Shown here piece by piece: positions 11,819-55,544 of a stretch of DNA of 64,000 nt. The stretch's first letter is position 1; every line of letters begins with the position of its first letter. Below the pieces are notes generated by a model. That model made no database searches. It saw only the letters and a program-made list of their open reading frames with translations, and had not been told where the DNA came from. Position numbers and translations under genes: made by a program. This DNA is from Pseudomonadota bacterium (GTDB lineage: Bacteria; Desulfobacterota; SM23-61). The DNA is taken from NCBI GenBank assembly GCA_018819135.1, contig JAHJQK010000052.1:1-64000 (forward strand), given 5' to 3'.

Positions 11819-13369
11819 TCACGGGGTCACCTGCTGTTCATTTAGGACATAATAGGTGGCGCGAGCAGCCCCTCGTTTTTCAACCAACCGCATTTTCTGA
11901 AGCTTGGCCATATCTTTCCTGACGGCCTGATCGGTAACTTTTAATTGGGCGGCGATTTTCGGGACCTTCACTTCCCCATTCTTCAACAACCCCCGCATGA
12001 TCATTTTCTGGTTGGGGGTTAGTAGGTCTACAAGTGCGGGTTTAACCGCAAAGATAGGCTGCGCCTTCTCTGCTCTAAGTTTTGCCAGCGACTTAGAGGG
12101 CCCCTTGAAAACCACGGTGAAGTGGCCGTCGGTAATAGAAAATTCTGGAGCCGACAATCCCATGTTTTTCGTTGCCATGACCATGCGGCGTAATCCGTCA
12201 CCCTGTTCTTCGATACGCTCGAAAAAGGAAAGCCCACGGGCAATATTGGGGTTCCGCGAACACGGCAGGTATTTAAGAGAGCGAAGTTTTGCCAATGTCA
12301 AGGGTGGTGGGGGTAAGCCCGGACTAAAGATCATGATCCGGTCGGCGTATTTCTCGACACGGATGCCCGCTCCGCGAATTCCGTAGTCGCGGTGGGCTAC
12401 AGCGTTGATAAGCGCCTCGCGCAGAGCCTCGTATGGATATTCATTAAGCTCGACCCGGGCGAATCCGCGGACCGCTTGGGTATGTCTCATGTTCCGGATC
12501 AGAAAATCGATTGCTTCCTGAATGGCCCCCGGCAAAGGCTTGTGGATATTACGACGATCGATGGGTTCACCCTTTTCGGCGCCCCCATAAGCGTTGGCCG
12601 CTATCCGGATCTGAGGGAAGACAGCGTCAGGTGTCTTCCCAAAAAGGAGCAGCCCTGCCGCTGTGGGCCGATGTCGCTGGTGTTTTTCGTCATACCAAAG
12701 CAGACCCCGACTGAGTAGAGTCCGCTGAATGATTGCTTGGTTTTTCGGTGGTATATTTAGGACAGCGGTGACATATTGCCTGGTCAGATCCGGATCAAGA
12801 TCTGTGATGTCCTCTTGCTTGAGCAACTGGGTATCGAAATCAGAAGCGGCGCTTAGTGTTTGAACGAACTCGGTTTGCTCTGCAATAGAGGGAGTCAGCC
12901 CGCGGTTTTTTAAAATCGGCAAGAGCGCGTCCCGTATAGACTGTTTCAAATCCTGGTAGTTGGAAAACCTTCGATAAGTATGTCCGGTTTTGGAATCGCG
13001 CACTCGAGCAAACAACTCCTGCATTTTTTGGTTGCGGTCTTTGTCGCGGCCCGCCTGGCCTTTGACAAAAATTATCATAGGCATTTGATGCTTTTCGGCT
13101 CGAAGGTATTCTCGGTGCATTGCTGACAGACCATCCGGCCCCGTTGGCCCGTATTCTAACCCGATAATTCCTATGTAGACATCCGAGGAGTCCAGTTCAG
13201 TTAGATAAGCTTTCTGTGCGGGCAAGGTAGAAGCAGGCAACCGCTCAAATAAAACAGCCTCACAGTGACGGGATAGAAAAGGATCCGTACTGATTAGTTC
13301 CGCACTCGCGACTCGTTCATTCTCCAGTTCTTGCTGAACGGAGCTTACAAAAACCTTAACTTTGCTCAT
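11819..13369 (-). CDS. DUF4062 domain fused to AlbA/RecG-like ATP-binding region with C-terminal winged helix
   Basis: N-terminus MSKVKVFVSSVQQELENERVAS (DUF4062); YEALREALINAVAHRDYGIRGAGIRVEKYADRIMIFSPGLPP (HATPase_c_4/RecG-like); C-terminal LKVTDQAVRKDMAKLQKMRLVEKRG helix-turn-helix. Confidence 0.87.
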   Translation of the reverse strand: MSKVKVFVSSVQQELENERVASAELISTDPFLSRHCEAVLFERLPASTLPAQKAYLTELDSSDVYIGIIGLEYGPTGPDGLSAMHREYLRAEKHQMPMIIFVKGQAGRDKDRNQKMQELFARVRDSKTGHTYRRFSNYQDLKQSIRDALLPILKNRGLTPSIAEQTEFVQTLSAASDFDTQLLKQEDITDLDPDLTRQYVTAVLNIPPKNQAIIQRTLLSRGLLWYDEKHQRHRPTAAGLLLFGKTPDAVFPQIRIAANAYGGAEKGEPIDRRNIHKPLPGAIQEAIDFLIRNMRHTQAVRGFARVELNEYPYEALREALINAVAHRDYGIRGAGIRVEKYADRIMIFSPGLPPPPLTLAKLRSLKYLPCSRNPNIARGLSFFERIEEQGDGLRRMVMATKNMGLSAPEFSITDGHFTVVFKGPSKSLAKLRAEKAQPIFAVKPALVDLLTPNQKMIMRGLLKNGEVKVPKIAAQLKVTDQAVRKDMAKLQKMRLVEKRGAARATYYVLNEQQVTP

Positions 13370-13370
13370 G

Positions 13371-13600
13371 TGTTGGATCCCGTTGCCGCTTGGGCAATTT
13401 CCTTTACACTGATTAAAACGCTTCCCTTGGCCTTGGCGAGTAGACTTCCAAAGGGGTCTTGCACTCGAACGAGCCTCGGACTCGGTATGGCGCAATTGTA
13501 GACGGCATAGAGCCAATACCCGTCCCGCATGTTGCATTCTTTGACCCATTCGTTAGCTGATACCTCTGCGTCTCCCCTTTCGGCCCGGCAATGATAACGA
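13371..13600 (-). pseudogene. Relict DUF3883 domain (C-terminal tail of a lost helicase-type protein)
   Basis: Minus-strand frame RYHCRAERGDAEVSANEWVKECNMRDGYWLYAVYNCAIPSPRLVRVQDPFGSLLAKAKGSVLISVKEIAQAATGSNT* matches DUF3883-type tails. This frame differs from the listed ORF 13413-13694. Confidence 0.7.
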
Positions 13601-13707: not shown

Positions 13708-14409
13708 TCATTTAAGCTTCAAGGAGTCCCATTCCTTAAGGATGGCTTCTTGTAAAGCCCCGATACTTACCAAAATCGACGAAGATCGGCCACGCAGTGT
13801 GTGACCAATTTCGTTGCCAGCTGAATCTTTGATAGGTACAGATTGGCTACGCAGTGCGTGGCCAATTTCAAGAACATGCGGAACGTCGAAGATTGGCAAT
13901 TTCCGAGGCGCTGCGTCGGAAAAGTCAAGAGCATTCGATTTTCCACGCACTGCATGGATTTTTTCGGCCGCCTCGGATTTCGCACGCACTGCGTTCGAAA
14001 TTCTTCTCTGGGTTGATTCCATGTGGGCTACAGATTCGCTACGCACTGCGTAGCGAATCTTCGGGTCACCAAGCAGTAGAGGATACATCAGATAGAATTG
14101 CCGGATAAAACGGAGGTTCTGTTCTGAATAGCCTGTGCCAAAATCACGGGTCAACTTAGCAGACAAATCTTCAAGTAGCTGATCGCCATACCCCGCTCTT
14201 TTTCGTCCCATCTGCTCCTCTTCAACAATCTCCCTTCCGATAAGCCAGTTGGCCACCACTTGGGTGGTGTTGACGGTCCGGGACACGTTTGTCCGGGCCG
14301 ATTCCAGGATCTGGCGGATCCGTTCATACAGTGGTGTCTTTTTCCTTCCGGGCAAACTTACCGGCTTCTCGCTCACGATTCCCACTCCTTTAAAACGACT
14401 GCTTTCCAT
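13708..14409 (-). CDS. DUF1016 N-terminal domain protein (YhcG-like), C-terminal nuclease half replaced by repeat-rich sequence
   Basis: TTQVVANWLIGREIVEEEQMGRKRAGYGDQLLEDLSAKLTRDFGTGYSEQNLRFIRQFYLMYP is a typical DUF1016_N; the rest is repeated [N/H]A[L/V]R units. Confidence 0.75.
   Translation of the reverse strand: MESSRFKGVGIVSEKPVSLPGRKKTPLYERIRQILESARTNVSRTVNTTQVVANWLIGREIVEEEQMGRKRAGYGDQLLEDLSAKLTRDFGTGYSEQNLRFIRQFYLMYPLLLGDPKIRYAVRSESVAHMESTQRRISNAVRAKSEAAEKIHAVRGKSNALDFSDAAPRKLPIFDVPHVLEIGHALRSQSVPIKDSAGNEIGHTLRGRSSSILVSIGALQEAILKEWDSLKLK
13785..14059. repeat. About six palindromic repeats with core ACGCA-S-TGCGT inside the DUF1016 gene
   Basis: Includes a perfect 13+1+13 palindrome GATTCGCTACGCA-C-TGCGTAGCGAATC (14033-14059) and degenerate copies near 13785, 13842, 13900, 13943 and 13979. 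Confidence 0.85.
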
Positions 14410-14878: not shown

Positions 14879-17671
14879 TTAAGCTGAAAACCTGCACAAA
14901 CCCAAGAGACTAATCTGTAATCCTGCCCTGGATTGGCGGTCTGGAAGCCATTCGATGATGGCATTTTGTAGGGCAGCTTCTATGCCTTCCTGTGCTTTTT
15001 GAAAATCACCAAGGTCTGCTTCTGATTTTTCCGCTGCATATAATTCAAACCGTCTTAAGGATAGCACTTCCGAAGTTTGAGCATTGTACTGAAAATTAAA
15101 TGTTCTCCCTTGCAGTTGGCCAGCCGGAGTTCGATGCTGAACCAAATAGTGGGCGCAGATTTTATTTCCACTCGCTGCACCGGAGACATTTCCCGGCAAA
15201 ACAGGCTGTCTGAATTCTTCGATCAAAGCATCGACAAGCGGGTGGCCCAATCCGGCAAGTTCACAATTCCGAACCCGCAAGGCCAATTCGCGGTCGAAAG
15301 TCACCCGCTCATACCGAGGGGCCAGCCGATACGATTGCCTCATGGAATCCGGCGTAATCAATAGCCAGAAATCTCCATCAGGTATGGCAGCCCCACCCAA
15401 TTTGAGGATTGCATTCCGGACCCACTGACCCAGTTCTCCGAGAGTATATCGGCCCTCAAGCTTTTTGAAGTGTTCAAGATTAAAACTGCTTAGATCCTGA
15501 CTCAGGGTATTCAATGCTTCCCGGGCTCGAAGGGCTTCTTCGAACATCTTCTGCATTTCTTTTTCGGTGCGCCGATAATCTTTATCCACGAGAGCCATTT
15601 TATAAAGATCCTGGTAGTCGGGACGGCTGCCAAGATAGCCAAGGATATCCGTTCGGAAATCCTCCATCGGCCTTCCCTCTTCGTCGATCTTTCCGATGGA
15701 TCCCGCAATCTCCAATAACTTTCCTTCCAGAAGATCGTAAATCCGCTCCTCCACCGTATCTTCCGCCACCAGGTTGTAGACCTGGACAGTATCCTTTTGC
15801 CCGTAGCGATGGACCCTGCCGATGCGTTGTTCAACCGCCATAGGGTTCCAAGGCAGATCATAATTGAAAAGAATGCGGCCGATTTGAAGATTAATTCCTT
15901 CCCCTCCCGCCGAGGTGCTGATTAGGAAATGGGCGCCATCTTTTTTCCAGAAGGCCTCAACGGCTGCGATCTTATCCTCAATCGGGCCGCCCTTGATTGT
16001 GGCGATCCGCCCCAAGCCAAAAATCTTCCCCAGCTCTTCCTTAAGAAATTCCAGGGTGTCCAGATACTGGGTGAAGATAACAAATCTCTCTTTTGCTTCC
16101 GAACGGGATAAATCGCTGATGGCCCGTACCAGCGTGTCGAAGCGCCTGTCTCTTCCATCCGGAACCAGGGATATCAGTTCCCGCACCTTCTCAATCTCGT
16201 TGGGGATGTCTGCTTCAGCAAAAACTCCGTCTTCCGCCTCCTCATCCGGATCAAGAGACCAGGTTGTGGTCTCATAATCCTCTTCCATTTTCTTTAGAAT
16301 GCGCCGCCTCACTCTCTGCACATAAGCTTCCGCATCGCTGTTCATCTTCTTTTCAAGACCAAGGATCTTCGTTGCCAGATTCAGCATCTCATCCTGGATC
16401 CCCATGATCTCTTCGGCTACCGTGGCTCCGGCACGTCTCTTAGCCTCAAGCTGGATTTGCTTTCGAGTGAGGAGAACGAGCAGCCTCCGCCGCAGGGCCT
16501 GAAGAATGGCCCTTGGGCTCGACGACATGATCTTCTGAAATGTGGCCATTACAAAGCCGATGGCCCGTTGTTTGCTCGTTGTTTTTGCCTGATGAATGCC
16601 CGCCGCATCGTATCCCTCCCGCAGGTAATCGCTCAGTTTCTCATAGAAATTGCGCTCCCGGGGGGCCATGCTGAAAGCTTCGGTGAAAACCTGCCTCCGG
16701 CAAAAAATCGAATTCCCCTGGACATCGGTTACTTCCCTTTTGGTCCGCCGGATCATTACACGCGCAAGCAATCCCCTGTGGTTGGAAACATCATCCGAAG
16801 AGGCAAAGAGCTGGTCGTTCAAGAGCTGGATCAAAGACCAGAACTGGAAGGCATTTCCCTGGTGGGGAGTTGCGGTAAGAAAAAGGAAATCCCGCGTGTG
16901 GCCCCGCAAAGCTTCTGCCAGCTTATAGTTTAGCGTCACATTCGTTTTATTGCCAGTGCGGATCCGGGAAAGATGGTGGGCTTCGTCGATTACGATTAAA
17001 TCCCAGGGAGGGGCGGAAAGAAGCCTCTGCACCCTTCTCGTAACCTTTAGGGTGTCAATGGAGGCGATAACTAAATGATGGGTTTCCCAGGTTGCCGAAC
17101 CATGGTCCAAAAAATCCTGATTCAGGATTTCGAAGTGCAGTCTAAAGCCGTTGGCCAGCTCCTGCCTCCAGTTGCGCGTCAGGCCGGCAGGGGTAACGAT
17201 CAGGATCCTTTCCGCCTCTCCCCGGGCGATCAACTCCCTGAACAGCATCCCGGTTTCAATGGTTTTTCCCAGCCCGACCTCGTCGGCGATAAGGAGGCGA
17301 CGGTCGCGCATGGCCACCAGGTCGTGGACCAGAAGGATCTGATGGGGAAGAAGGTTTACCCGGCTGGAGCTGAGCTCACCGCCGTTGTTGGAATAGATAA
17401 ATTCAAAGGCAATCTGCTTGAGCCGATAGAATTCGGGATCATCCAAATTTCCGGCTGCCAGCCTCTGCCATAGATCGGCGGTCGATTCCAAAAGTTCGAG
17501 GGGGATCGTTTCAAGTTTTCTCCCTTCCGGAGAATCAAAAGCCACATCCGCCTGATATACTCCGGCAAACTCGGCAATCCTTAAAACCTCGCCCGTACCC
17601 AATTCAGGTCTTGAAGGAACTCTGACCCGATCATAGAGTTTTAGAGAGCTATTTCCATTCGTTCCGTTCAT
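14879..17671 (-). CDS. SNF2-type helicase of the defence operon
   Basis: LLIADEVGLGKTIETGML, DEAHHLSR, FLTATPHQG, STSAGGEGINLQIGRILFNYDLPWNPMAVEQRIGRVHRYGQKDTVQVYNL. Confidence 0.92.
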   Translation of the reverse strand: MNGTNGNSSLKLYDRVRVPSRPELGTGEVLRIAEFAGVYQADVAFDSPEGRKLETIPLELLESTADLWQRLAAGNLDDPEFYRLKQIAFEFIYSNNGGELSSSRVNLLPHQILLVHDLVAMRDRRLLIADEVGLGKTIETGMLFRELIARGEAERILIVTPAGLTRNWRQELANGFRLHFEILNQDFLDHGSATWETHHLVIASIDTLKVTRRVQRLLSAPPWDLIVIDEAHHLSRIRTGNKTNVTLNYKLAEALRGHTRDFLFLTATPHQGNAFQFWSLIQLLNDQLFASSDDVSNHRGLLARVMIRRTKREVTDVQGNSIFCRRQVFTEAFSMAPRERNFYEKLSDYLREGYDAAGIHQAKTTSKQRAIGFVMATFQKIMSSSPRAILQALRRRLLVLLTRKQIQLEAKRRAGATVAEEIMGIQDEMLNLATKILGLEKKMNSDAEAYVQRVRRRILKKMEEDYETTTWSLDPDEEAEDGVFAEADIPNEIEKVRELISLVPDGRDRRFDTLVRAISDLSRSEAKERFVIFTQYLDTLEFLKEELGKIFGLGRIATIKGGPIEDKIAAVEAFWKKDGAHFLISTSAGGEGINLQIGRILFNYDLPWNPMAVEQRIGRVHRYGQKDTVQVYNLVAEDTVEERIYDLLEGKLLEIAGSIGKIDEEGRPMEDFRTDILGYLGSRPDYQDLYKMALVDKDYRRTEKEMQKMFEEALRAREALNTLSQDLSSFNLEHFKKLEGRYTLGELGQWVRNAILKLGGAAIPDGDFWLLITPDSMRQSYRLAPRYERVTFDRELALRVRNCELAGLGHPLVDALIEEFRQPVLPGNVSGAASGNKICAHYLVQHRTPAGQLQGRTFNFQYNAQTSEVLSLRRFELYAAEKSEADLGDFQKAQEGIEAALQNAIIEWLPDRQSRAGLQISLLGLCRFSA

Positions 17672-18102
17672 GTTAGATTAAAACCCGTCATAAAATATTC
17701 GTTGCCGTTTTGATCAGATTGTTTTATGGGTGAACCGAAGATGGGCCTGAGGCTGACCCGCCGATTGCCCCCAGGATCAAACCAGAAATCATCGGCTCTT
17801 TTCAGGGATCTTCGAAAAACAATCTGGACCTGCCCGAGGTTCGCTTCCAGTTCATTGGCCCGGGAAGTCAGGATATTTCGGATTCCAAGGGAGACTTTCA
17901 TAAAATTCTCGCCGGACCCTGCTTGGAGGAGAACTTCCTCCAGGCCCACCACGCAAAGCTTATTACCCCTGGAAAATGGAAATACCTCTTGGCGCAGCTC
18001 CCGTAGAAAATCCAGGAAGCCCATCCTCTTAGGATTCGGCGGAAATCCTTTTGGACGATAGGGCTGAAGCATCCGTTCTTCAATCAGGAGATAGTTTCCC
18101 AT
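17668..18102 (-). CDS. 144-aa protein of unknown function in the defence operon
   Basis: ORF overlaps the helicase start by 4 bp and follows the methylase stop by 17 bp; no family recognised. Confidence 0.75.
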   Translation of the reverse strand: MGNYLLIEERMLQPYRPKGFPPNPKRMGFLDFLRELRQEVFPFSRGNKLCVVGLEEVLLQAGSGENFMKVSLGIRNILTSRANELEANLGQVQIVFRRSLKRADDFWFDPGGNRRVSLRPIFGSPIKQSDQNGNEYFMTGFNLT

Positions 18103-18119
18103 TTATTCTCCCATTTTTC

Positions 18120-21100
18120 TCACCCATGGTCGGGCTGAATACCATCCGCAGAGCTCCCTCTACTCGTTTCAAAAAGCGGCACTCCCTCCATGATGTTCAA
18201 AACCCTGTCAATATACTCTTTCCAGTCCTTTCTTCGCTCGCGGGCGAAGCGCAGGGCGGCCCTCAATTTCGGCCGCATGTGGGAAAACCTTTCCAGCCAG
18301 GGGGCAACGGATTCCCCAGACCAGGAAAGGCCGATGAAGAGGTGAATTAGATCGACGAGTGGAACATTATGAACGATGGGCCTGCTCATCTCATCAAATA
18401 AGGCCATCTGGGGCTTCTTCTGCGTAAATGACGGCTCGAGTTTTTCCTTTATGGAGTTCAGCCGTTCATCCGGCTGTTTTACCTTGAAATACCTTCCCCT
18501 TCCGGTCCTTCCCTTGATAATCAGACCCGCTTTCTTGAGGTCTTCCGCATTGACTTGCATGGCCCTCAGGGCTTTGCTGATTTCGTTGACGTTGATTTCC
18601 ATTTTCGTCTCGAGAAGGACTCTGAGCCACGCATAGGAGATGGGATCCACGTCTTCTTCCAATTCGGGGGGCAGAGGTCTTTCCCGGGTCACCAGCTGGT
18701 CAACAATCGTGCCGATATCCTGGAGAGTCTCGTGAAGCCTGAATTCCTTTCCTTCATAATCAACCACTTTTCCGTAGTGGCGGCTGTAAAGCTCTAAACA
18801 TTTACCGATGCAGATGAGACGCACATCATTGGCGTTCAGGGGTTCATTGCCATAACGGCCGTCTTCGATGGCCTTGAGCTCGGTTCTGGCCTTTTTCCTT
18901 ACCTCCTGCCTAATCCCCGCCCAAGAACGTGTCTCTGGTTCAACCCGCCGTTTTCGGCAGACATGAATGAGATCGTAGGATATGTTTTCTTTATCCATCA
19001 AATGGAGGGAGGATTCGGATTCTCCATGGATAGGATAGACTGCGGAGATTTCAAAACCTGTATCGCACAAAGATTGCAAGAGGCCTTCCCAGACCAAGCC
19101 TTCTTCATCGGTATGGTGAAAAGTAAAGACCAACAGGCCATCATCCGGCAGCGACTCATGAATACGGGTAAAAGCCCCTTTTAAGCCATCGAAAAAATCC
19201 TGCCTGCTTTTTCCTCTGGTCCGGTTTTCAACAATTTCTTCGACTTTTGGAGTAAATTCAGGAGTAAAGTGTGGGTAGGTATTTTTTAGAACCAGTCTGA
19301 GCCAGACGTAGTAAAAATCCGAAAGTTCAGAATAATTGACATTGCCCACATAGGGGGGGTCGGTAACGCATAAAAAAGGCGAAATCTTGGGTTGGAATGA
19401 AGAACTATTTCTGCACTCAAGAGCCAGGGGAGAATTTTGCACTCTATCGACAATAATCTTTGACCGTTTCGAATCGGCCTTTGCTTCAATAAAGTCCCAA
19501 CAGTTCTCTTTAAATGCCAATCCTTCCTGCAGCAAAGAAAGTTTAGACTCAAAAGACCCCATCGCAATCCTTGGAATGCCAAACACATTATTTTCGGTTA
19601 TTGTCAACTTCGGCTGAAAATCGTGTCTGGCAAAAACGCCTTGAACTGTTTGGCCCCCAGCGGACTTTCGCTCAGCCATGTAGCGGCAAAATTGGTTATT
19701 CAGCTCCAGTGCACCTGAAAATGAACACAACAACATCTCCCGCAATCTCTGATCCGGCTCTTCCATGATCCCCGTTAGCAGCGTAGAAAGGGCCAGGAGC
19801 TGACGTGGGAAAAACATTTCGCGCCAGTATTGGTAGTGGTGCTTGATCATCTGATTGGTGTTATATCCGATTGGGATCTTGCTCGTGGGATATGGAAGGT
19901 TTCCTTTATTGTTTTCCCAAAGTGAACCTGCTTTTTGAAGCTTAGCCCTGTCCGCCGGAGTAAATCGCTTGAAGAATTTTCCGTTTTTGGGAAGAAGCAG
20001 ATTTTTAGGGGTTCCTCTTAGCCCTCCCTTCGCCTGCTGCGAATTTTTATGATTCCCAATTATTGGCAAAGGAGTATCCCGATCTTCTTCATCGTCTGAA
20101 TTCGTCGGGAGGTAAGCCAGGATAGCATAAGGTCGAACTGGAAGGCGCTGTTCTTTGGGAAGGCGCCTTATACTTTCGATGATCTTGTCAGCGTTCCCGC
20201 ATTTGCAGAGAAACTTTCCCTTGGCAGGAACATTCCCTTTCCTGGGATCATAAACATGCTGGCAGGAAGGGCATTTTATTTCTCCTTCGGGAAGGGCTCC
20301 TCTCCATTGCCAGACCGCTTCGCACTCCGGGCATAACAGAACCGTCAGGGGCACCCTTTTTCTTTTTAGCTTCTTATCCTTTAACCTGGGCTGTCCAGCC
20401 TTGGAGCAATGGGGACAGACCACCTGGATCGATTCCTGCCTCCCATTTGATCTGGGGGTATAGCTCCAGTATTGAGTCGGCCTTCCTTCACCGGCGCTCC
20501 CCCGGGAAGCGTTTACCATCATTGTCGGATCGGCGATAAGGGAGGCGACAGCAATTTCCCAGTCATAGATTTTTATGCAATGCGGGCAGGTTACGTCAGG
20601 ATGATATTGAACCGATGGAGCCTTGTGAGCAATGATGTAATCATCAAAGAGAGGGATCTCTCTTTTGCAATTTGGATCGGTGCAGATAGCGTGTTTTACC
20701 CAGAAGGTGTAAATCACGTCCGCTTCAATTCCCGGCTCCGCCTCGGTCCGGTAAAGACCCAGCAGAGTATCCCTGAGAGGCTGGCCCCTGTTCCATTCCA
20801 CTGGCCGCTCCGCCAGGCGTTCGAAACCATCCTGAAGCTCTTTCAGGTCAACCGGCTCAACTTCGGTTTTGACGATGAACCAAGCAACCGGATTCAGATC
20901 GATTCCGATGACCTTACATCCCAGCCTGAGGGCTTCGACCACGGTCGTGCCGCCCCCCATGAACGGGTCGAGAATTGTTTTTCCCGAGGTATCGGGGTCG
21001 TTCGTATGATCTTTGTAAAACTCTGCCATCAGGTCAACGGGTTTCCCATCCGGCCCAAAGGCTGGTTTCAGCGCCCCTAAGAGTATGGCCCGGAAGACAC

Positions 21101-21239
21101 ATGAAGCCCGACGGGCGAACCATTTGTGCATCTGGTAAATGGGTTTGAAGGAATTTCGCTCAGGGACGGCGAGGCGGTTGATTTCCACGATGGGGAAACC
21201 GACTTCAATGGCGCGGGGGATGGTTTCTCCTGAATTCAT
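18120..21239 (-). CDS. DUF1156/COG1743 DNA methylase with zinc ribbons
   Basis: IYQMHKWFARRASCVFRAILLGAL (DUF1156); motif I DPFMGGGTTVVEALRLGCKVIGIDLNP; motif IV TDPPYVGNVNYSELSDFYYVWLR; multiple CxxC pairs. Confidence 0.93.
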   Translation of the reverse strand: MNSGETIPRAIEVGFPIVEINRLAVPERNSFKPIYQMHKWFARRASCVFRAILLGALKPAFGPDGKPVDLMAEFYKDHTNDPDTSGKTILDPFMGGGTTVVEALRLGCKVIGIDLNPVAWFIVKTEVEPVDLKELQDGFERLAERPVEWNRGQPLRDTLLGLYRTEAEPGIEADVIYTFWVKHAICTDPNCKREIPLFDDYIIAHKAPSVQYHPDVTCPHCIKIYDWEIAVASLIADPTMMVNASRGSAGEGRPTQYWSYTPRSNGRQESIQVVCPHCSKAGQPRLKDKKLKRKRVPLTVLLCPECEAVWQWRGALPEGEIKCPSCQHVYDPRKGNVPAKGKFLCKCGNADKIIESIRRLPKEQRLPVRPYAILAYLPTNSDDEEDRDTPLPIIGNHKNSQQAKGGLRGTPKNLLLPKNGKFFKRFTPADRAKLQKAGSLWENNKGNLPYPTSKIPIGYNTNQMIKHHYQYWREMFFPRQLLALSTLLTGIMEEPDQRLREMLLCSFSGALELNNQFCRYMAERKSAGGQTVQGVFARHDFQPKLTITENNVFGIPRIAMGSFESKLSLLQEGLAFKENCWDFIEAKADSKRSKIIVDRVQNSPLALECRNSSSFQPKISPFLCVTDPPYVGNVNYSELSDFYYVWLRLVLKNTYPHFTPEFTPKVEEIVENRTRGKSRQDFFDGLKGAFTRIHESLPDDGLLVFTFHHTDEEGLVWEGLLQSLCDTGFEISAVYPIHGESESSLHLMDKENISYDLIHVCRKRRVEPETRSWAGIRQEVRKKARTELKAIEDGRYGNEPLNANDVRLICIGKCLELYSRHYGKVVDYEGKEFRLHETLQDIGTIVDQLVTRERPLPPELEEDVDPISYAWLRVLLETKMEINVNEISKALRAMQVNAEDLKKAGLIIKGRTGRGRYFKVKQPDERLNSIKEKLEPSFTQKKPQMALFDEMSRPIVHNVPLVDLIHLFIGLSWSGESVAPWLERFSHMRPKLRAALRFARERRKDWKEYIDRVLNIMEGVPLFETSRGSSADGIQPDHG

Positions 21240-21742
21240 AGATGGATATCCGAAGGCATGGCTATGGAGAGTTCGGTCGTTTTCCGAAAAACAGCATCGG
21301 CGGTGACCAGCACATCTGCCCCGATTCTCACGGCTGTGGCCAGGACCACCGAATCATTGGTAAGCAGGCCATACTTTTCCTGGTAATGGAAGGCACTTTC
21401 GAAGAAATCTTCGCTGGTACAAGGCTCGTATCCCAGGCCAAGATTCACCAAGGCCTTTATCTTGTCCCTGTAAAGGCCAAGGCTCTTGATCGCTTCCGGC
21501 TGTCTTGCCAGCTTCCGGGCGGCATTGAGACCTGAAACTTTCCCCAGCATTTCCGCTTCCGCCAGCATCAACCTGTGGGTGAGTTCATGCCATACTGTTT
21601 GGGGAAGAATGCAGGTCAGTTCTCCGGTAGAGCAGCGTCGCAAAAGACGCTGAGCCTGACGGGAAAAGCTCTGCTCTGCATACAGAAGTATGTTGGTATC
21701 AAGAACGCAAAGGCTTGCATTGGCAATATCATCAAGGTTCAT
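21236..21742 (-). CDS. PIN-domain toxin (VapC-like)
   Basis: CVLDTNILLYAEQ, acidic residues in WHELTH and LLTNDSVVLATA, VTADAVF. Confidence 0.87.
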   Translation of the reverse strand: MNLDDIANASLCVLDTNILLYAEQSFSRQAQRLLRRCSTGELTCILPQTVWHELTHRLMLAEAEMLGKVSGLNAARKLARQPEAIKSLGLYRDKIKALVNLGLGYEPCTSEDFFESAFHYQEKYGLLTNDSVVLATAVRIGADVLVTADAVFRKTTELSIAMPSDIHL

Positions 21743-21993
21743 AAGTTCCAGGCGTCCTCTTCCAGGATTTCCTTAAATTGATTCTTGCTGATGCGGATTG
21801 GCCGTTCACAAAAAAGCTGATAGGCCTTCTCCCGCTTTTTAGGATCGAGCGCTTTATCGCTCAGATAGGAGGCGAGGGCATCCTGGATCACGTCGCTTAG
21901 AGGTCTGCCTTCCTCCGCAGCCCGGCGTTTCGCATGCCGGATAATTTCTTCATCGAGTAGGGTTCCCACTTTCTTTTTCATGACAAACTCCAT
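21739..21993 (-). CDS. Ribbon-helix-helix-type antitoxin
   Basis: MKKKVGTLLDEEIIRHAKRRAAEEGRPLSDVIQDALASYL; 4-bp overlap with the PIN gene. Confidence 0.82.
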   Translation of the reverse strand: MEFVMKKKVGTLLDEEIIRHAKRRAAEEGRPLSDVIQDALASYLSDKALDPKKREKAYQLFCERPIRISKNQFKEILEEDAWNL

Positions 21994-22980
21994 TCATTCC
22001 ATGGGTCCGAGAAGGAGCCAAGGTGTCAAAACCTCCATCAGGCTTAAGCCTCCATGACGATAAAGAGACTGGGAAGGATTAGGGGCCTGCGGCTTATTGT
22101 GATAGCGGCCCTTTATGACCGCCAGGCGCTTCGCCTGATTTATAAAAAGCCCCGGTTCTTCACCTGGAAGAGGCTCTTCCGCAGGAAACTCCGCAAATCG
22201 TTTTCCTTTCAACGGCCGGTCCGATCTGTCCAGATTGCGGTCGCTCAGGCCCGGGCCGAAAAACACATAGCCATGGTCGCTGGTCACAAGAATAGAGCGT
22301 GAAGCAGGAAGGGCCTGTACAGTCCTTTGCCAGACCAGATCCATGTTGTCCCAGATCCCATCATAAAAATCGGCACTTGAGGCGGTGCTGTCCATAAACC
22401 TGAGGTCCGGAAAGCGGTGCCATACCAGCGTGGGTTCCGGCACATCATTGATATGCTGCGACTCATTTGGATTTTGAAAAAAATGGTAGCGGATGCCGTT
22501 TCCCTGTAAAATTCGATTCGATACCAGTTGTGAAGGTCCTAACAACGGAAGCCCAAAGCCCAGACATTCGCTTATAAAGTACTCAGTCGTGCTTGGTATT
22601 GCCGAGCAACCGACAGCGCACTCCAGAACCGGCCTATGGGATCTTTGGGCTAATTCCAGAAACTTGGGCAGCTCTCGCAGGGACGATCCATCAAGGACAA
22701 CGACGCAGGCATTTTCATTGGATCTAAAAAAATCCGCAATCGTCTTTGCCGGTCTCTCAGCGGAAGTAAGCTCTCCGAAATAGGAATCGGCTGCGGCAGT
22801 TAACAATGACTCCATGTCATTAACCAGTCTTTCACCGGATTTAAGGTACTCCGATGGAACATCTTTGCATTGATGAAAACGATCAGCCGTCCATACTTCA
22901 TCCATTAGCCATTTCTTTAGGCGCGGTAAACGAGGCTCAGGGCGGGTCCAAACATCCAGGTAAGACGGATTTATCATCAT
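21994..22980 (-). CDS. Short PglZ-like (alkaline-phosphatase-fold) protein
   Basis: VVVLDGSSLRELPKFL, ILVTSDHGYVFFGPG, LYRHGGLSLMEVLTPWLLL follow the PglZ motif layout; only 328 aa. Confidence 0.75.
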   Translation of the reverse strand: MMINPSYLDVWTRPEPRLPRLKKWLMDEVWTADRFHQCKDVPSEYLKSGERLVNDMESLLTAAADSYFGELTSAERPAKTIADFFRSNENACVVVLDGSSLRELPKFLELAQRSHRPVLECAVGCSAIPSTTEYFISECLGFGLPLLGPSQLVSNRILQGNGIRYHFFQNPNESQHINDVPEPTLVWHRFPDLRFMDSTASSADFYDGIWDNMDLVWQRTVQALPASRSILVTSDHGYVFFGPGLSDRNLDRSDRPLKGKRFAEFPAEEPLPGEEPGLFINQAKRLAVIKGRYHNKPQAPNPSQSLYRHGGLSLMEVLTPWLLLGPME

Positions 22981-25586
22981 GATGACTCTTCCTCATCCAG
23001 AGATCCGTTTTTTTGGGGGATCTTGGAAGTAATCCGCATCTGGGCTCGATAATCTCCGTTTTCAAAATGAGGCAGGGATTCACAAAGACCTTCAACTTTG
23101 GCTTTATCCATCGGACCAGGAATAGAAAGGTCGATTTGCACTTCCAAATTGCCGCTTTCCGTTAGAGAACCGCGAATGGCGCTCGGGTAATCCGCCAGAT
23201 TTGCTTTGTGATGGCGGGCAAAAATCCGGAATTGCACGGACTGAATTATCGGCCCTTCGATATCGGAAAGCTTCCCGGCAATTTCCTGTCGGAGATCCCC
23301 TTTGGTCCGGCAATTCAAGGTTCCTCTTTCCTCAATATTCTGGAATGGCGTTGGAATTTCCGGCTTTGAGACCGGTTCTACCGGCCTTGGCTGAAATACG
23401 GGAAGAGGGGTGTTAACTGGTTCGGGACTTGGCGCATGAGAAGAAGAGGGCCAGGGGGAAGCAAGGATTGCGCTGGGCAATTCCCCCGCTCCAAGGGTTA
23501 CCCTCTCACCACAAGGATTCTGTCTGGTATGCTCCAGGCCAAGAATACGATTTCGATCTTCGACCAGCGCGACGATGGCTTCGGGAATTTCTGAAAAGGT
23601 TGTTGGAACCGGATAGCCCAGAGTGTTCCGATAAGTATGCTCCACCTGGGAAACGGTCTGGCCGAAAAAACGATGGAGGTTTTCTTTCAAATGTTCCTGG
23701 AACAAAGTCCGGGGATAGATCTGTTTGCGGATATGATCCATGATTCCTTGCTTATCCCACGCCTGGCCAAGAGATTCGAGGACAAAATCCGAGTCATCCG
23801 GGCGATCCGCCCACTCTTCAATCCGAACATACCAAAGTCCGGCAGCCTTTATAAAATCGCGGACGTTGGCCCTCTCTTTACCGGCAATGCTTTCATAGCG
23901 ATTTCGCCTCTCCGCCGTGCTGGCGCTCGGCGCCAGAGTAGTGGCCGCCATGGATCTTTTCGCAGCGACAAGAATATCCTGATTGTTGAGATGATTCGCA
24001 TTCTCTTCCTTTGGCTCCAGAAGAAGGATTTGATTCCGCAACTCAGCTCCGTGATAAAGGTCATGGCGTTCAAACGACGACAACCGGCGCGGGCTAAGAA
24101 CAAAGCGCAGGGATGTCTTAGGCAGCTGATTAAGCGCGTTTCGGGTTGACTCCAAATCTGTAAAAACGACAGCCTGCAGCGGTTCTTTAAACAATTCCTG
24201 CTTCCAAATGGTCTTAACTTCTTCCCTGGCCCGCTCATCCCCGAGTCGGATGGCTTCGATTTCCACCTTGGCGTTCTCATTTTCTTCCAGATCAAAAAAG
24301 AAACGTCCCTCCCGTTCATGGAAATAGGAGCCGAAGGTTCGGAAAGCTTGGAGCGTGCTTTCAAATTGATTGGGGTCACACCCCGGATAGGCCACATGCC
24401 TTACTAAATCTTCCCGGGTCAATCCCTTAACTCCCGGAACAATGGAGGCAAGGAGGACCGCCGAAGCTAAGAGCTCGCTATAGGGTTGGGTCTGCAAATC
24501 CTGGAAGTTTCTCTGGGCGCAATTAATGAGACTTCCGGAAGGCTCAAGGTCCTGAAGTCTGTCAGCGCAAGCTCCATGAGTAAGTCGGCAATGCCCGGCA
24601 GTAATTAGATAGGAACTGGTAGTGGAGGCGTCCAGCATCGCGGCCAAAAGTCCAAGGGCTCCCCGAGTTCCTTGAAAACCGCCGCTTCCGCCTGTGCGTT
24701 CAAAAATCAGTTCTATTAATCCAGGCAGAAAAGGAAAAGCGTTCTTTATTCTGGACAAATATTCATCCGATGTGCTGATCCCTAATCGATTCCAGGTATT
24801 GATATACGATCGGATGAGAGCTTCAGATGCAGAGCGATCATAAGAATCAGCATTGACGAAGAGACGATGCCGGACGATAGCCGCCCGATCCTCCGGCCTC
24901 CGGAAGCGAAGCTCAATTCGAGGAACTCTTTTTAAGGTAGATCCCGGCTCACTGGTTCCATCATAAACCGCCGCAAAAATTGTCACCTGATTTGTGCGGT
25001 TGGCTTCCTCGGAGAGCATCTGCAGGAAACTCAGGTTCTGGCTCTTTTTAGCCGGGTCGGAAATATTGGAAATCCCCCTCTCCAGTTCATCGAAAACCAA
25101 TATGAGATGCTTCTTATTGAGCACTGCTCTCAGTTCATCCAAAGAAGGTTGATGGGATGGATCCCACTTGACATTTAGCTCTTGCCCTAAGTCCGTCCAT
25201 AGGGAATCAAAAGGTAAATATTGATCGGTGAATTTTTTTATGATGATGACCGGCTTAGCGGGAGGAGACCAGTCAAATCCTTGGATGGACATCCATTTTT
25301 TTGCCGGCTCCGGGCTGGCAAACAAATGATAAGCCGTGAGCAAGGCGTGCGATTTCCCAAAGCCTTTTACCGCTTCCGCCAGAAACAACCCATTCCCTTC
25401 CGCTTCTTTCGAAGCAAAGCGGCGGCTCAAGGCCTGGAGCATGGCCCGAAGATCTTCCGAAGGATAAGTCAGGTTAAGAAACAATCCCGGGTCGCGCTCA
25501 ATGCACTTCGAAGAACCTGACCTTAATCTTTCCAGGTCAATGATTCCATCCACTTGCTTTGCTGAGCGGTATCTTTTCTTTAACAT
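22977..25586 (-). CDS. DUF499/BrxC-like P-loop ATPase
   Basis: FLAEAVKGFGKSHALLTAYHLF (variant Walker A), KHLILVFDELERGI (Walker B); 869 aa; first gene of the operon. Confidence 0.78.
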   Translation of the reverse strand: MLKKRYRSAKQVDGIIDLERLRSGSSKCIERDPGLFLNLTYPSEDLRAMLQALSRRFASKEAEGNGLFLAEAVKGFGKSHALLTAYHLFASPEPAKKWMSIQGFDWSPPAKPVIIIKKFTDQYLPFDSLWTDLGQELNVKWDPSHQPSLDELRAVLNKKHLILVFDELERGISNISDPAKKSQNLSFLQMLSEEANRTNQVTIFAAVYDGTSEPGSTLKRVPRIELRFRRPEDRAAIVRHRLFVNADSYDRSASEALIRSYINTWNRLGISTSDEYLSRIKNAFPFLPGLIELIFERTGGSGGFQGTRGALGLLAAMLDASTTSSYLITAGHCRLTHGACADRLQDLEPSGSLINCAQRNFQDLQTQPYSELLASAVLLASIVPGVKGLTREDLVRHVAYPGCDPNQFESTLQAFRTFGSYFHEREGRFFFDLEENENAKVEIEAIRLGDERAREEVKTIWKQELFKEPLQAVVFTDLESTRNALNQLPKTSLRFVLSPRRLSSFERHDLYHGAELRNQILLLEPKEENANHLNNQDILVAAKRSMAATTLAPSASTAERRNRYESIAGKERANVRDFIKAAGLWYVRIEEWADRPDDSDFVLESLGQAWDKQGIMDHIRKQIYPRTLFQEHLKENLHRFFGQTVSQVEHTYRNTLGYPVPTTFSEIPEAIVALVEDRNRILGLEHTRQNPCGERVTLGAGELPSAILASPWPSSSHAPSPEPVNTPLPVFQPRPVEPVSKPEIPTPFQNIEERGTLNCRTKGDLRQEIAGKLSDIEGPIIQSVQFRIFARHHKANLADYPSAIRGSLTESGNLEVQIDLSIPGPMDKAKVEGLCESLPHFENGDYRAQMRITSKIPQKNGSLDEEESS

Positions 25587-25800
25587 GTTTCAGGAATAAA
25601 CTACTTTTCTTGATATGTCAAGAAATATATTTATGTAAAATTAAATTTTTATTTTCCTGGTTGGTAATTTTATCCCTTTTTCCTAAAAATGAGCAAAAAT
25701 AGTCGATTCTTATCTCATTAAGGGGATTGGGTTCGTTTCCTTTGATAATTTGATCCAGGTAGTCGATGAACTCGTAAAAAATATGAAAAGACGTTTTTCT

Positions 25801-53170: not shown

Positions 53171-54481
53171 CTATGTCTTGTCTAATGCTCTCAAAAGAGC
53201 GTCGAATGCTCCAAGCAGATCATCATAGGTTAGAAATTTAATTCGACCAAAGTCAATGCCCTTCAATTTGCGAAGGTGCTCAGGATCATTTTCAACGTCA
53301 CGTCCTGCAATAACAACAGCTCGAACTGATCCAACCTGTTTCTGGTCTAATCTGATACATTCAAGAACTGCCAATCGATGTTCATCTGAAGTATGCAACC
53401 AATTTCGAGCTTGATCAAAGGCATGCTGCAAATCCGAATGTACTCCTCCATCCTTCTTCAATATCTGTGTATGAGGTTTTTCAAGCTCAATGAGAATCAA
53501 TTCCTTGGCATGGCTTAAAATCGTGAAATCCGTTTTATAAAATGACAGAAGCGGTGCCTTAAAGAAAATAAGGGATGGCGAAAATTCGTGAAGAAGGACT
53601 GGATTTTCCTCAAGGAATTTTTGTAGAATTTCTTCCGATTCTTTTTGATCCAGAAGTGCACAGAAATTGGTTCGGATGGTATCAAGTGCATCTCGCTCAT
53701 AAGATGGAATAAGAGTAACGTCTTCGCTACCCCTCTTTTGCCCCAGTAGCCCATGGAGATTTGATCTGATTATTGTGAGGTTCGCTTCTAATTTTCCGCA
53801 ATCACAGACAAACTTTCCGGGAAGATTCTGATACCATACGAAACCATTACCTTCCAGGCTGGCGTCTTGCTCCAATCCTGCATATGATTTCAAGCTACCA
53901 CCACACATTTTGCAACTGAGAACTAAATGAACACCCTTTGCGGCTCGCGGATCACTTCGAATTGCCGCAATTCGAGCTTCAGATAGGGGCTCAGGATTTA
54001 TTAGACCAAAATTTAGACTTCCTACCTTCGTTTCACTGCCTTCTTCCAACAGCCAGAGGTGATAAAGACCAGGTTTTGGGATCGTTAGCTCCATTCCGGA
54101 AACGGGCAAAACTAAAAATGCCCATGTCGATTTGTGAACATTCGGTATGATAGCATCCGTTTTAATTATTGGAGCCTCGGTTAAAGACTTTTGTTTTGAA
54201 AGGTCAAGATCAAATGGCAACTCCCCAAATCTGAAATTCATGGTGGCTGCTTCTACGCCATCGTTATCTCGCCATTTCAAAGCGAAAGATTCATCTGGAT
54301 TCATGTCGTAGATTGAAAATGCAAACCCTCCTCCTCTTAGGGTCAGGGGGTATATATAGGAAAATATTATTTGTTTAAATCCCAAGATATTATATTTCCA
54401 CAGTCTTGGATGCGTGTTCTGAACCAGAGAATATCGTTCCACATAGCCCAAAAATCCAATAGAAGGTATACTCTTCGCCAT
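53171..54481 (-). CDS. Shedu-like (DUF4263) nuclease with CxxC zinc motif
   Basis: KFLEENPVLL...YKTDFTILSHAKELILIELEKPHTQILKKDGGVHSDLQHAFDQARNWL...VRAVVIAGRD; upstream CKMCGG...FVCDCGKLE. Confidence 0.82.
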   Translation of the reverse strand: MAKSIPSIGFLGYVERYSLVQNTHPRLWKYNILGFKQIIFSYIYPLTLRGGGFAFSIYDMNPDESFALKWRDNDGVEAATMNFRFGELPFDLDLSKQKSLTEAPIIKTDAIIPNVHKSTWAFLVLPVSGMELTIPKPGLYHLWLLEEGSETKVGSLNFGLINPEPLSEARIAAIRSDPRAAKGVHLVLSCKMCGGSLKSYAGLEQDASLEGNGFVWYQNLPGKFVCDCGKLEANLTIIRSNLHGLLGQKRGSEDVTLIPSYERDALDTIRTNFCALLDQKESEEILQKFLEENPVLLHEFSPSLIFFKAPLLSFYKTDFTILSHAKELILIELEKPHTQILKKDGGVHSDLQHAFDQARNWLHTSDEHRLAVLECIRLDQKQVGSVRAVVIAGRDVENDPEHLRKLKGIDFGRIKFLTYDDLLGAFDALLRALDKT

Positions 54482-54512: not shown

Positions 54513-55544
54513 TTACCGAGCCCTGAATTCCTTGAGCCTGGAACATTCAATTAATTGGTCAAGCGTTTTGAAGGTGAAAACCTTACCGCGAGTTGCCAAA
54601 AGCATCTTTTTCATGTCCTCGCGACGAACCCCAAATCCACGACCGCCAATGCACGCGATGACCTCAAATTTAGGGTTATTCGGCGACTGGTCATTTTTGC
54701 TCAATTCTCCAAGGTGCTGAATTCGGGTAACCTTGTCGCGCGCCGTGCCGTCGTCTTCCGTAATTTTGGCTTCAATAATTACTTGCGGATTGAATTCGCT
54801 GGGGATAATGAAATCCGGAGCCTGGTCGAAACCCGGGATCTGCTCAGCTCTCTTGGTCTTCCGGTAACTAATACCCGCCTTCGTCAGGACATCCTCAATA
54901 GCCGACTCCAAAAAGTCCCCAACCAGTTCGCTTACGGAATCACGATGACCGGCGAAGGGTCTGCCCAGGAATCTTTCGTAAAGGAGCATGGCATAAGGAA
55001 CGCCAATTTTGGCCAAAGCCTGCATCCCCTTCAATCCCGTTGCCGTGTCAGCCTTATCTAAACGATGAATTTTATCTGACTCTACCGCAGGGGCTCCTTC
55101 TATGAGTAAATTGCAGGCCGTTTCTATGAGTGCTTTCAAACGGAATCCGGAGATGCCATTTCGCTTTATTGGAGACAAGGGATTCATCCGAACTTTACGA
55201 TCAAGCGACCGAATAAATCCCTGAGAAATTTCCGTACTTGTTCGCCTTGATGCAACGTACGCCCACTCCGGGGGTGAAAAGCCAAGGAGGGTGCGCAAAA
55301 CCACAATCGAAATAGGGACAGAGAAGGCAATGGGGAGAACGCAATCGACGGAAAAGTTTATGAAGCCCCCAGTCCCCTGTTTTAAAGCTTCATACCCTTG
55401 CTCAAAAACTGGATAATCGACAAACCCTGCTCCTCTTGGCAGGACAAGGAATTCAGATTCGAGGCAAGAGAAGACCACAGAAACAAAAGGATCGGGATTT
55501 TCTTGAATGATGGGAAAGGGAACTTCAAAAGGAAATTTCGTCAT
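54513..55544 (-). CDS. Putative PD-(D/E)XK restriction endonuclease
   Basis: QAPDFIIPSEFNPQVIIEAKITEDDGTARDKVTRIQHL (D-x(n)-E-x-K); start overlaps the methylase end. Confidence 0.75.
   Translation of the reverse strand: MTKFPFEVPFPIIQENPDPFVSVVFSCLESEFLVLPRGAGFVDYPVFEQGYEALKQGTGGFINFSVDCVLPIAFSVPISIVVLRTLLGFSPPEWAYVASRRTSTEISQGFIRSLDRKVRMNPLSPIKRNGISGFRLKALIETACNLLIEGAPAVESDKIHRLDKADTATGLKGMQALAKIGVPYAMLLYERFLGRPFAGHRDSVSELVGDFLESAIEDVLTKAGISYRKTKRAEQIPGFDQAPDFIIPSEFNPQVIIEAKITEDDGTARDKVTRIQHLGELSKNDQSPNNPKFEVIACIGGRGFGVRREDMKKMLLATRGKVFTFKTLDQLIECSRLKEFRAR

What the first reader, a model, noticed from the sequence alone, without database searches (positions are those of the whole stretch)
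14879..25586. Candidate novel defence operon: DUF499-like ATPase - short PglZ-like - RHH/PIN toxin-antitoxin - DUF1156 methylase - 144-aa protein - SNF2 helicase
Seven minus-strand genes are packed with 4-bp ATGA-type overlaps or gaps under 20 bp (22980/22977, 21742/21739, 21239/21236, 17671/17668), so this looks like one 10.7 kb transcript. Helicase + DUF1156 methylase + DUF499 ATPase is the core described as the Hma (helicase/methylase/ATPase) candidate defence system in PADLOC. PglZ with a BrxC-like ATPase and a COG1743 methylase is the logic of BREX type 3. Here the two logics meet: the ATPase has a variant Walker A (AVKGFGKSH), PglZ is reduced to 328 aa, and a toxin-antitoxin pair sits in the middle of the core genes. 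I do not know a named system with exactly this composition and order.
Basis: partly seen in the sequence, partly recalled or inferred. Interest (0 to 1): 0.92.

Follow-up and report, generated by a model that had tools for sequence, protein, structure and literature searches.

The report
BREX-related defence operon with built-in toxin-antitoxin
This is a seven-gene anti-phage operon of a recently named BREX-related kind in which a toxin-antitoxin pair has become a fixed part, and the DNA site to which the antitoxin probably binds lies at the head of the whole operon, so the pair likely acts both as the operon's switch and as a backup weapon.

Summary
In detail: seven overlapping minus-strand genes at 25586-14879. 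The core (DUF499 ATPase, stand-alone PglZ, DUF1156 methylase, 144-aa protein, SNF2 helicase) is conserved in order from archaea to enterobacterial plasmids. It matches the 'Type-3 BREX-Related' system published in January 2026, so that part is not new. What I did not find described: (1) the RHH/PIN pair is not an accidental insertion. On a tree of the core genes it marks one clade (support 1.0) and is present in all 26 readable members, across about eight phyla, always between pglZ and the methylase, and it co-diverges with the core. (2) The window has a perfect palindrome, TTTCTTGACATATCAAGAAA, over the -35 box at the operon's head. It is the only such site in the genome. Its core heptamer occurs upstream of 20/25 operons with the pair and 0/51 without, and the same half-sites stand directly before the antitoxin in all seven free-standing relatives of the pair examined. 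The antitoxin therefore probably controls the whole defence operon. (3) Outside the clade the same junction is empty or holds other defence cargo, including complete SIR2-HerA and IetAS systems. Regulation and toxicity are inferred; nothing was tested at the bench.

The parts
25606..25625 (-). Perfect 8-4-8 palindrome TTTCTTGACATATCAAGAAA, the proposed antitoxin operator; its left arm overlaps the -35 box TTGACA and its right arm lies in the -35/-10 spacer
   Evidence: (the only site in 4.43 Mb with up to 1 mismatch)
25593..25621 (-). Promoter: TTGACA (25621-25616), 17 nt, TATTCC (25598-25593); only 6 nt between the -10 hexamer and the ATG, so the mRNA is probably leaderless
   Evidence: same spacing and position in relatives L026, L027, L029, L031, L033, L037
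22977..25586 (-). DUF499/HmaC-like AAA+ ATPase, 869 aa
21994..22980 (-). Stand-alone PglZ (alkaline-phosphatase-fold nuclease domain), 328 aa; D97, S100, T132, D192, D235, H236, H309 conserved in all loci where readable
21739..21993 (-). Ribbon-helix-helix antitoxin (DUF6364), 84 aa
21236..21742 (-). PIN-domain RNase toxin, 168 aa; acidic residues D15, E53, D112, D130, D149 present
18120..21239 (-). DUF1156 N6-adenine DNA methylase, 1039 aa, with DPPY motif and four CxxC pairs in the insert
17668..18102 (-). 144-aa small protein, the positional equivalent of the iSTAND component of Type-3 BR systems
14879..17671 (-). SNF2-family helicase without a recognised nuclease domain, 930 aa

Best explanation
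The locus is a Type-3 BREX-Related restriction-modification-like operon of a clade that has absorbed a VapBC-like pair. Shown by sequence: the core gene set and order; the catalytic residues of PglZ and PIN; the fixed place and single origin of the pair on the core tree; and an operator-like palindrome over the -35 box of the whole operon that is shared with free-standing relatives of the pair and missing from operons without it. Inferred: the RHH antitoxin, alone or with PIN, binds that operator and represses the entire operon, so the defence genes are under the pair's autoregulation. The DUF1156 enzyme marks self DNA; the ATPase, 144-aa protein and helicase detect and process unmarked DNA; PglZ nicks it. 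When infection stops synthesis or degrades the short-lived antitoxin, the operon would be derepressed and the PIN RNase released as a last-resort growth arrest. The pair would thus be regulator and backup effector in one.
For: Core synteny in 80+ loci, archaea to Klebsiella plasmids. Published definition of the core (PMC12839542). PglZ fold and active site. Pair in 26/26 readable members of one clade, support 1.0, and in none outside it, on a tree built without the pair. PIN and RHH distances track the core genes (Mantel r 0.63-0.88, p 0.001 each; 7 of 10 well-supported PIN splits recur in the methylase tree). Operator: top 7-mer GTCAAGA/TCTTGAC 20/25 vs 0/51 (Fisher 4.9e-14; best of 100 label shuffles 2e-4); 5.1/kb vs 0.14/kb; absent upstream of the RHH gene itself inside the operons (1/26); unique in the window's genome; present directly upstream of the antitoxin in 7/7 free-standing relatives; PIN relatives with other antitoxins generally lack it. 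In L070 and L075 PIN catalytic residues are lost while an RHH gene and the operator remain, as expected if regulation is selected apart from toxicity.
Against: No binding, expression, toxicity or phage data. All operons with the pair form one clade, so the operator correlation inside it is not a set of independent events; the free-standing pairs are the independent support, and they number seven, some from related genomes. At least two of 25 operons (L074, L076) show no recognisable operator, and others (e.g. L032, L034) gave no match, perhaps through mis-called starts. The window's -10 box matches only 3 of 6 positions. RNase activity of this PIN and instability of this antitoxin are assumed from other VapBC pairs. 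The iSTAND identity of the 144-aa protein was not confirmed by fold search.
Confidence: 0.72

Rival explanations
1. The pair is only an addiction or guard module: it makes loss of the costly restriction operon lethal, and its promoter came along as a by-product. It does not regulate or execute defence.
For: Restriction operons are costly and the pair is co-transcribed with them. Plasmid and mobile settings are common for the family. Embedded pairs lie in single copy in 10/10 genomes tested.
Against: An addiction module works anywhere nearby; here the place is fixed to one junction and the operator stands at the operon head, not before the antitoxin. In L070 and L075 the toxin residues are lost but RHH and operator stay.
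Confidence: 0.3
2. The palindrome is the site of another regulator (a host factor or a DNA-binding domain of a core protein), and the link with RHH/PIN is by common descent only.
For: Core ATPases and methylases of the kind carry HTH domains according to PMC12839542. The TA+ operons are one clade.
Against: Operons with the same core but no pair lack the motif (0/51 for the top heptamer), and free-standing pairs without any core gene within reach carry it directly upstream of RHH (7/7).
Confidence: 0.15
3. Canonical BREX type 3 or Hma operon with a passenger toxin-antitoxin pair.
For: Domain matches to HmaA/B/C and BrxHI/HII.
Against: No BrxA, BrxC or BrxF match, no long PglZ, no nuclease match on the helicase; the pair is present in every readable clade member and co-diverges with the core.
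Confidence: 0.03

Closest known systems
Type-3 BREX-Related (BR) systems (Rakesh & Krishnan 2026, PMC12839542)
   Same: DUF499 ATPase, stand-alone active PglZ, DUF1156 N6-methylase, small iSTAND-like protein, SNF2 helicase without nuclease
   Different: RHH/PIN pair fixed between pglZ and the methylase and an antitoxin-type operator at the operon head; the paper's main text contains neither 'operator', 'promoter', 'ribbon' nor SIR2, and calls PIN RNases 'less commonly observed'
Hma system (HmaABC, PADLOC; = Type-1 BR)
   Same: Helicase, DUF1156 methylase and DUF499 ATPase
   Different: No PglZ, no small protein, no RHH/PIN; in Type-1 BR the helicase often carries a C-terminal nuclease
BREX type 3
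   Same: PglZ + AAA ATPase + COG1743-type methylase + SNF2 helicase logic
   Different: No BrxA, BrxC (DUF6079) or BrxF match; PglZ is the catalytic domain only
VapBC / FitAB type II toxin-antitoxin pairs
   Same: RHH antitoxin gene overlapping a PIN toxin gene, palindromic operator over the -35 box
   Different: The operator is about 3.6 kb upstream of the antitoxin gene, at the head of a defence operon
PrrC anticodon nuclease inside a type I restriction operon; CreTA in CRISPR loci (from my own knowledge)
   Same: A suicidal RNase or toxin nested in a DNA-targeting defence locus
   Different: There the restriction or Cascade complex holds the toxin in check; here the antitoxin seems to hold the defence operon in check

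Membership tests
Type-3 BR system | DUF499-type AAA+ ATPase | tested here: met
   HmaC 8e-19, DUF499 9e-11; NCBIfam DUF499_antiphage 1e-12, far below its curated cut-off; Walker A and B present
Type-3 BR system | C-terminal RRM-fold domain of the DUF499 ATPase | not tested
Type-3 BR system | DUF1156 N6-methylase with Zn-finger TRD insert | tested here: met
   DUF1156 and N6_N4_Mtase above Pfam cut-offs; DPPY and four CxxC in the insert
Type-3 BR system | BrxHII-like SNF2 helicase without nuclease fusion | tested here: met
   BrxHI/HII 3e-99, HmaA 5e-101; no nuclease domain found in Pfam
Type-3 BR system | Stand-alone, active PglZ | tested here: met
   Foldseek PorX 8e-10 and BREX PglZ 5e-7; catalytic residues conserved in all readable loci; activity itself not assayed
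Type-3 BR system | Separate iSTAND gene | tested here: inconclusive
   Conserved 144-aa gene in the same place, confident model, but Foldseek gives only P-loop folds at E 0.2 or worse
BREX type 3 | BrxA, BrxF and long PglZ present | tested here: not met
   No match in the seven proteins; PglZ is 328 aa
Hma / Type-1 BR | Three-gene locus only, usually with a nuclease on the helicase | tested here: not met
   PglZ and the 144-aa gene are conserved parts of the locus; no nuclease match
Type II toxin-antitoxin pair (VapBC-like) | RHH antitoxin gene followed by overlapping PIN gene with intact acidic site | tested here: met
Type II toxin-antitoxin pair (VapBC-like) | Autoregulated promoter directly before the antitoxin | tested here: not met
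   No motif before RHH in the operons (1/26); it is at the operon head instead
Type II toxin-antitoxin pair (VapBC-like) | Toxicity of PIN, neutralised by RHH | not testable with these tools
   Needs bench work

The most novel reading that the evidence does not exclude
A toxin-antitoxin pair serves as the infection sensor and master switch of a BREX-like restriction operon: loss of the antitoxin during infection both derepresses the whole defence operon and frees the RNase, giving a two-stage response. The pglZ-methylase junction is a general docking slot in which this pair or other complete defence systems (SIR2-HerA, IetAS, PARIS-like, Fic, Schlafen) are placed under the operon's control.
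Probability: 0.42. Interest if true: 0.87.

Novelty: new variant of a known kind. Interest (0 to 1): 0.7.

Why it matters
How costly restriction operons are kept quiet and turned on is poorly known, and the role of toxin-antitoxin pairs in defence islands is disputed. Here a pair has been fixed inside a defence operon over a long evolutionary span, with its likely operator controlling all the defence genes. This gives a concrete, testable case in which the antitoxin is the operon's regulator. The cargo slot also shows defence systems being nested inside one another, including in clinical Klebsiella plasmids, where a SIR2-HerA system sits inside a BR operon.

Tried and rejected
Viral contigs: no PglZ relative. 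The exact operator matched three viral contigs, none with RHH, PIN or PglZ nearby. E. coli genomes: no match to the Klebsiella pglZ. Foldseek of the 144-aa protein gave nothing significant. phmmer of PglZ and the ATPase against PDB sequences: none. Promoter-like and terminator-like consensus counts in the operon are not above shuffles. Rejected: 'degenerate PglZ' (active site conserved), 'variant Walker A' as a novelty (one conservative change), and 'pair as a one-off insertion' (clade-wide). The claim that the pglZ|methylase junction is the only cargo slot was rejected: other cargo also sits at methylase|144-aa (8/66) and 144-aa|helicase (6/62). Only ATPase|PglZ is never truly split; its two long gaps lie at broken or partial genes.

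Full report
OBSERVATION. The seven ORFs exist exactly as described and form one tightly packed minus-strand series (25586 to 14879). Family searches give: DUF499/HmaC-like ATPase; PglZ; a DUF6364 RHH protein; a PIN protein; a DUF1156 methylase; a 144-aa protein without a family; a SNF2 helicase. The window lies in a 4.43 Mb, 222-contig genome; the nearest relative of the operon is annotated as Thermodesulfobacteriota.

THE CORE IS A KNOWN KIND. A search with the short PglZ found the same order ATPase-PglZ-methylase-small protein-helicase in a Ca. Tenderia plasmid, Klebsiella KPC plasmids, Ensifer and Aminobacter plasmids, and, up to the small protein, haloarchaeal plasmids. In 80 loci of public genomes the order is the same nearly wherever enough of the locus is held (L031 has the helicase before the ATPase). 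This core is what Rakesh and Krishnan (NAR, January 2026, PMC12839542) call Type-3 BR systems: DUF499 ATPase, N6-methylase, BrxHII-like helicase without nuclease, stand-alone active PglZ, and an iSTAND protein in 82% of 569 taxa. The PglZ here keeps all metal and catalytic residues across the family, and its AlphaFold model (pLDDT 89.6) matches PorX (8e-10) and BREX PglZ in complex (9zn5, 5e-7). The 144-aa protein gives a confident model (pLDDT 94), but Foldseek finds only P-loop folds without significance, so its iSTAND identity is plausible by position and not shown.

THE TOXIN-ANTITOXIN PAIR IS A FIXED PART OF ONE CLADE. A tree of the concatenated ATPase, PglZ, methylase and helicase (87 loci, 3010 columns; the pair was not used) puts every locus with this RHH/PIN pair in one clade with support 1.0. 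All 26 readable members have it between pglZ and the methylase; the other two (L026, L030) end at the junction, and L026's genome has the pair on another contig (L107). Members are labelled Thermodesulfobacteriota, Myxococcota, Acidobacteriota, Nitrospirota, Methylomirabilota, Pseudomonadota, Lentisphaerota, Ignavibacteriota and Verrucomicrobiota, many of them metagenome bins. Distances of PIN and RHH follow those of the core proteins (Mantel r 0.63-0.88, permutation p 0.001; 7 of 10 well-supported PIN splits recur in the methylase tree). PIN acidic residues are kept in 24 of 26; L070 and L075 have lost some of them while keeping an RHH gene and the operator. In 10 of 10 genomes checked the embedded PIN is the only copy of its family.

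AN OPERATOR AT THE HEAD OF THE OPERON. The window has a perfect 8-4-8 palindrome, TTTCTTGACATATCAAGAAA, at 25606-25625, the only such site in its genome within one mismatch. It covers the -35 box; the spacer to the -10 is 17 nt, and the -10 ends 6 nt before the ATPase ATG, an arrangement repeated in L026, L027, L029, L031, L033 and L037 with small shifts. I chose the motif from the window first, so I repeated the search without it: an unbiased k-mer comparison of regions upstream of the ATPase gave GTCAAGA/TCTTGAC as the top heptamer, 20/25 operons with the pair and 0/51 without (Fisher 4.9e-14; best of 100 label shuffles 2e-4). Half-site density is 5.1/kb against 0.14/kb, and the motif is not placed before RHH itself (1/26). 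Because operons with the pair are one clade, this alone could be common descent. The independent evidence is free-standing RHH/PIN relatives with no PglZ or methylase found in the flanking DNA held: L108, L109, L110, L111, L160, L161 and L165 all have the half-sites directly upstream of RHH, whereas PIN relatives paired with other antitoxins generally do not, isolated single half-sites apart. L160 lies near a contig end, so its upstream context is short. The N-terminal MKxKxGT segment that would contact DNA is shared by embedded and free-standing RHH proteins. The simplest reading is that the RHH protein binds this site and that the whole defence operon is under its control.

CARGO SLOT. In operons outside the clade the pglZ|methylase junction is empty (43/58) or filled (15/58), with SIR2-HerA (Klebsiella, HerA 2e-225), complete IetAS (IetS E = 0), Fic, Schlafen-HATPase, OLD/AAA_15, DUF3800, a FitAB-like pair and unknown genes; inside the clade further cargo is stacked beside the pair: a NACHT-phosphoesterase, a PARIS-like AriAB, DUF3800, and Schlafen with a restriction-endonuclease-like domain. 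SIR2-HerA and IetAS sit among near relatives with an empty junction, so they look like recent gains. Other junctions also take cargo, except ATPase|PglZ. The published survey reports auxiliary effectors within core loci in general but mentions no SIR2, operator, promoter or ribbon-helix-helix in its main text; its supplements could not be read.

MECHANISM. Proposed: methylase marks self; ATPase, small protein and helicase scan and process DNA; PglZ cuts unmarked DNA (established for related BREX parts, inferred here). RHH, with PIN as co-repressor, holds the operon down. Antitoxin loss in infection both raises defence expression and frees PIN. The first half (RHH controls the operon) is well supported by sequence; the second half (PIN as backup effector) is inference from VapBC biology.

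VERDICT. Observation confirmed; interpretation partly supported. The core is an already named kind; the fixed pair with a displaced operator is a new variant.

Noticed in passing
L012 11731-24333 (pK518_KPC) and 33 further enterobacterial plasmid records: Klebsiella, Enterobacter, Citrobacter and Raoultella plasmids carry a Type-3 BR operon with a complete SIR2-HerA system inserted between pglZ and the methylase in the one read in full; the methylase gene is at least 99% identical in 34 records.
   Followed up: partly
window 53171-54481 and 55525-57735: Shedu SduA (2e-17) and a D12-type methylase match in or near a low-GC stretch: a probable second defence locus in the window.
   Followed up: no
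window 13708-14409 and 11819-13549: Just downstream of the operon: a DUF1016_N protein (PADLOC PDC-S02) and a DUF4062-HATPase-HTH protein, both on the same strand; possible further defence genes.
   Followed up: no
window 25586-25598: The -10 box ends 6 nt before the ATPase ATG, as in several relatives: the operon mRNA is probably leaderless.
   Followed up: partly
L070 11209-11772; L075 11213-11716: Two Verrucomicrobiota operons have a PIN with lost catalytic residues but keep an RHH gene and the operator: natural regulator-only versions.
   Followed up: partly
L178 1775-1794; L179 296-315: Two viral contigs carry the same type of palindrome over a promoter-like stretch, without any RHH/PIN of this family; another regulator or a decoy cannot be told apart.
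   Followed up: partly
L063 11029-11698; L077 5555-6224: In L063 a different PIN plus FitA-like RHH pair sits in the same pglZ|methylase slot, and L077 has a PIN of similar size there: an apparently independent gain of a toxin-antitoxin pair at that junction.
   Followed up: partly
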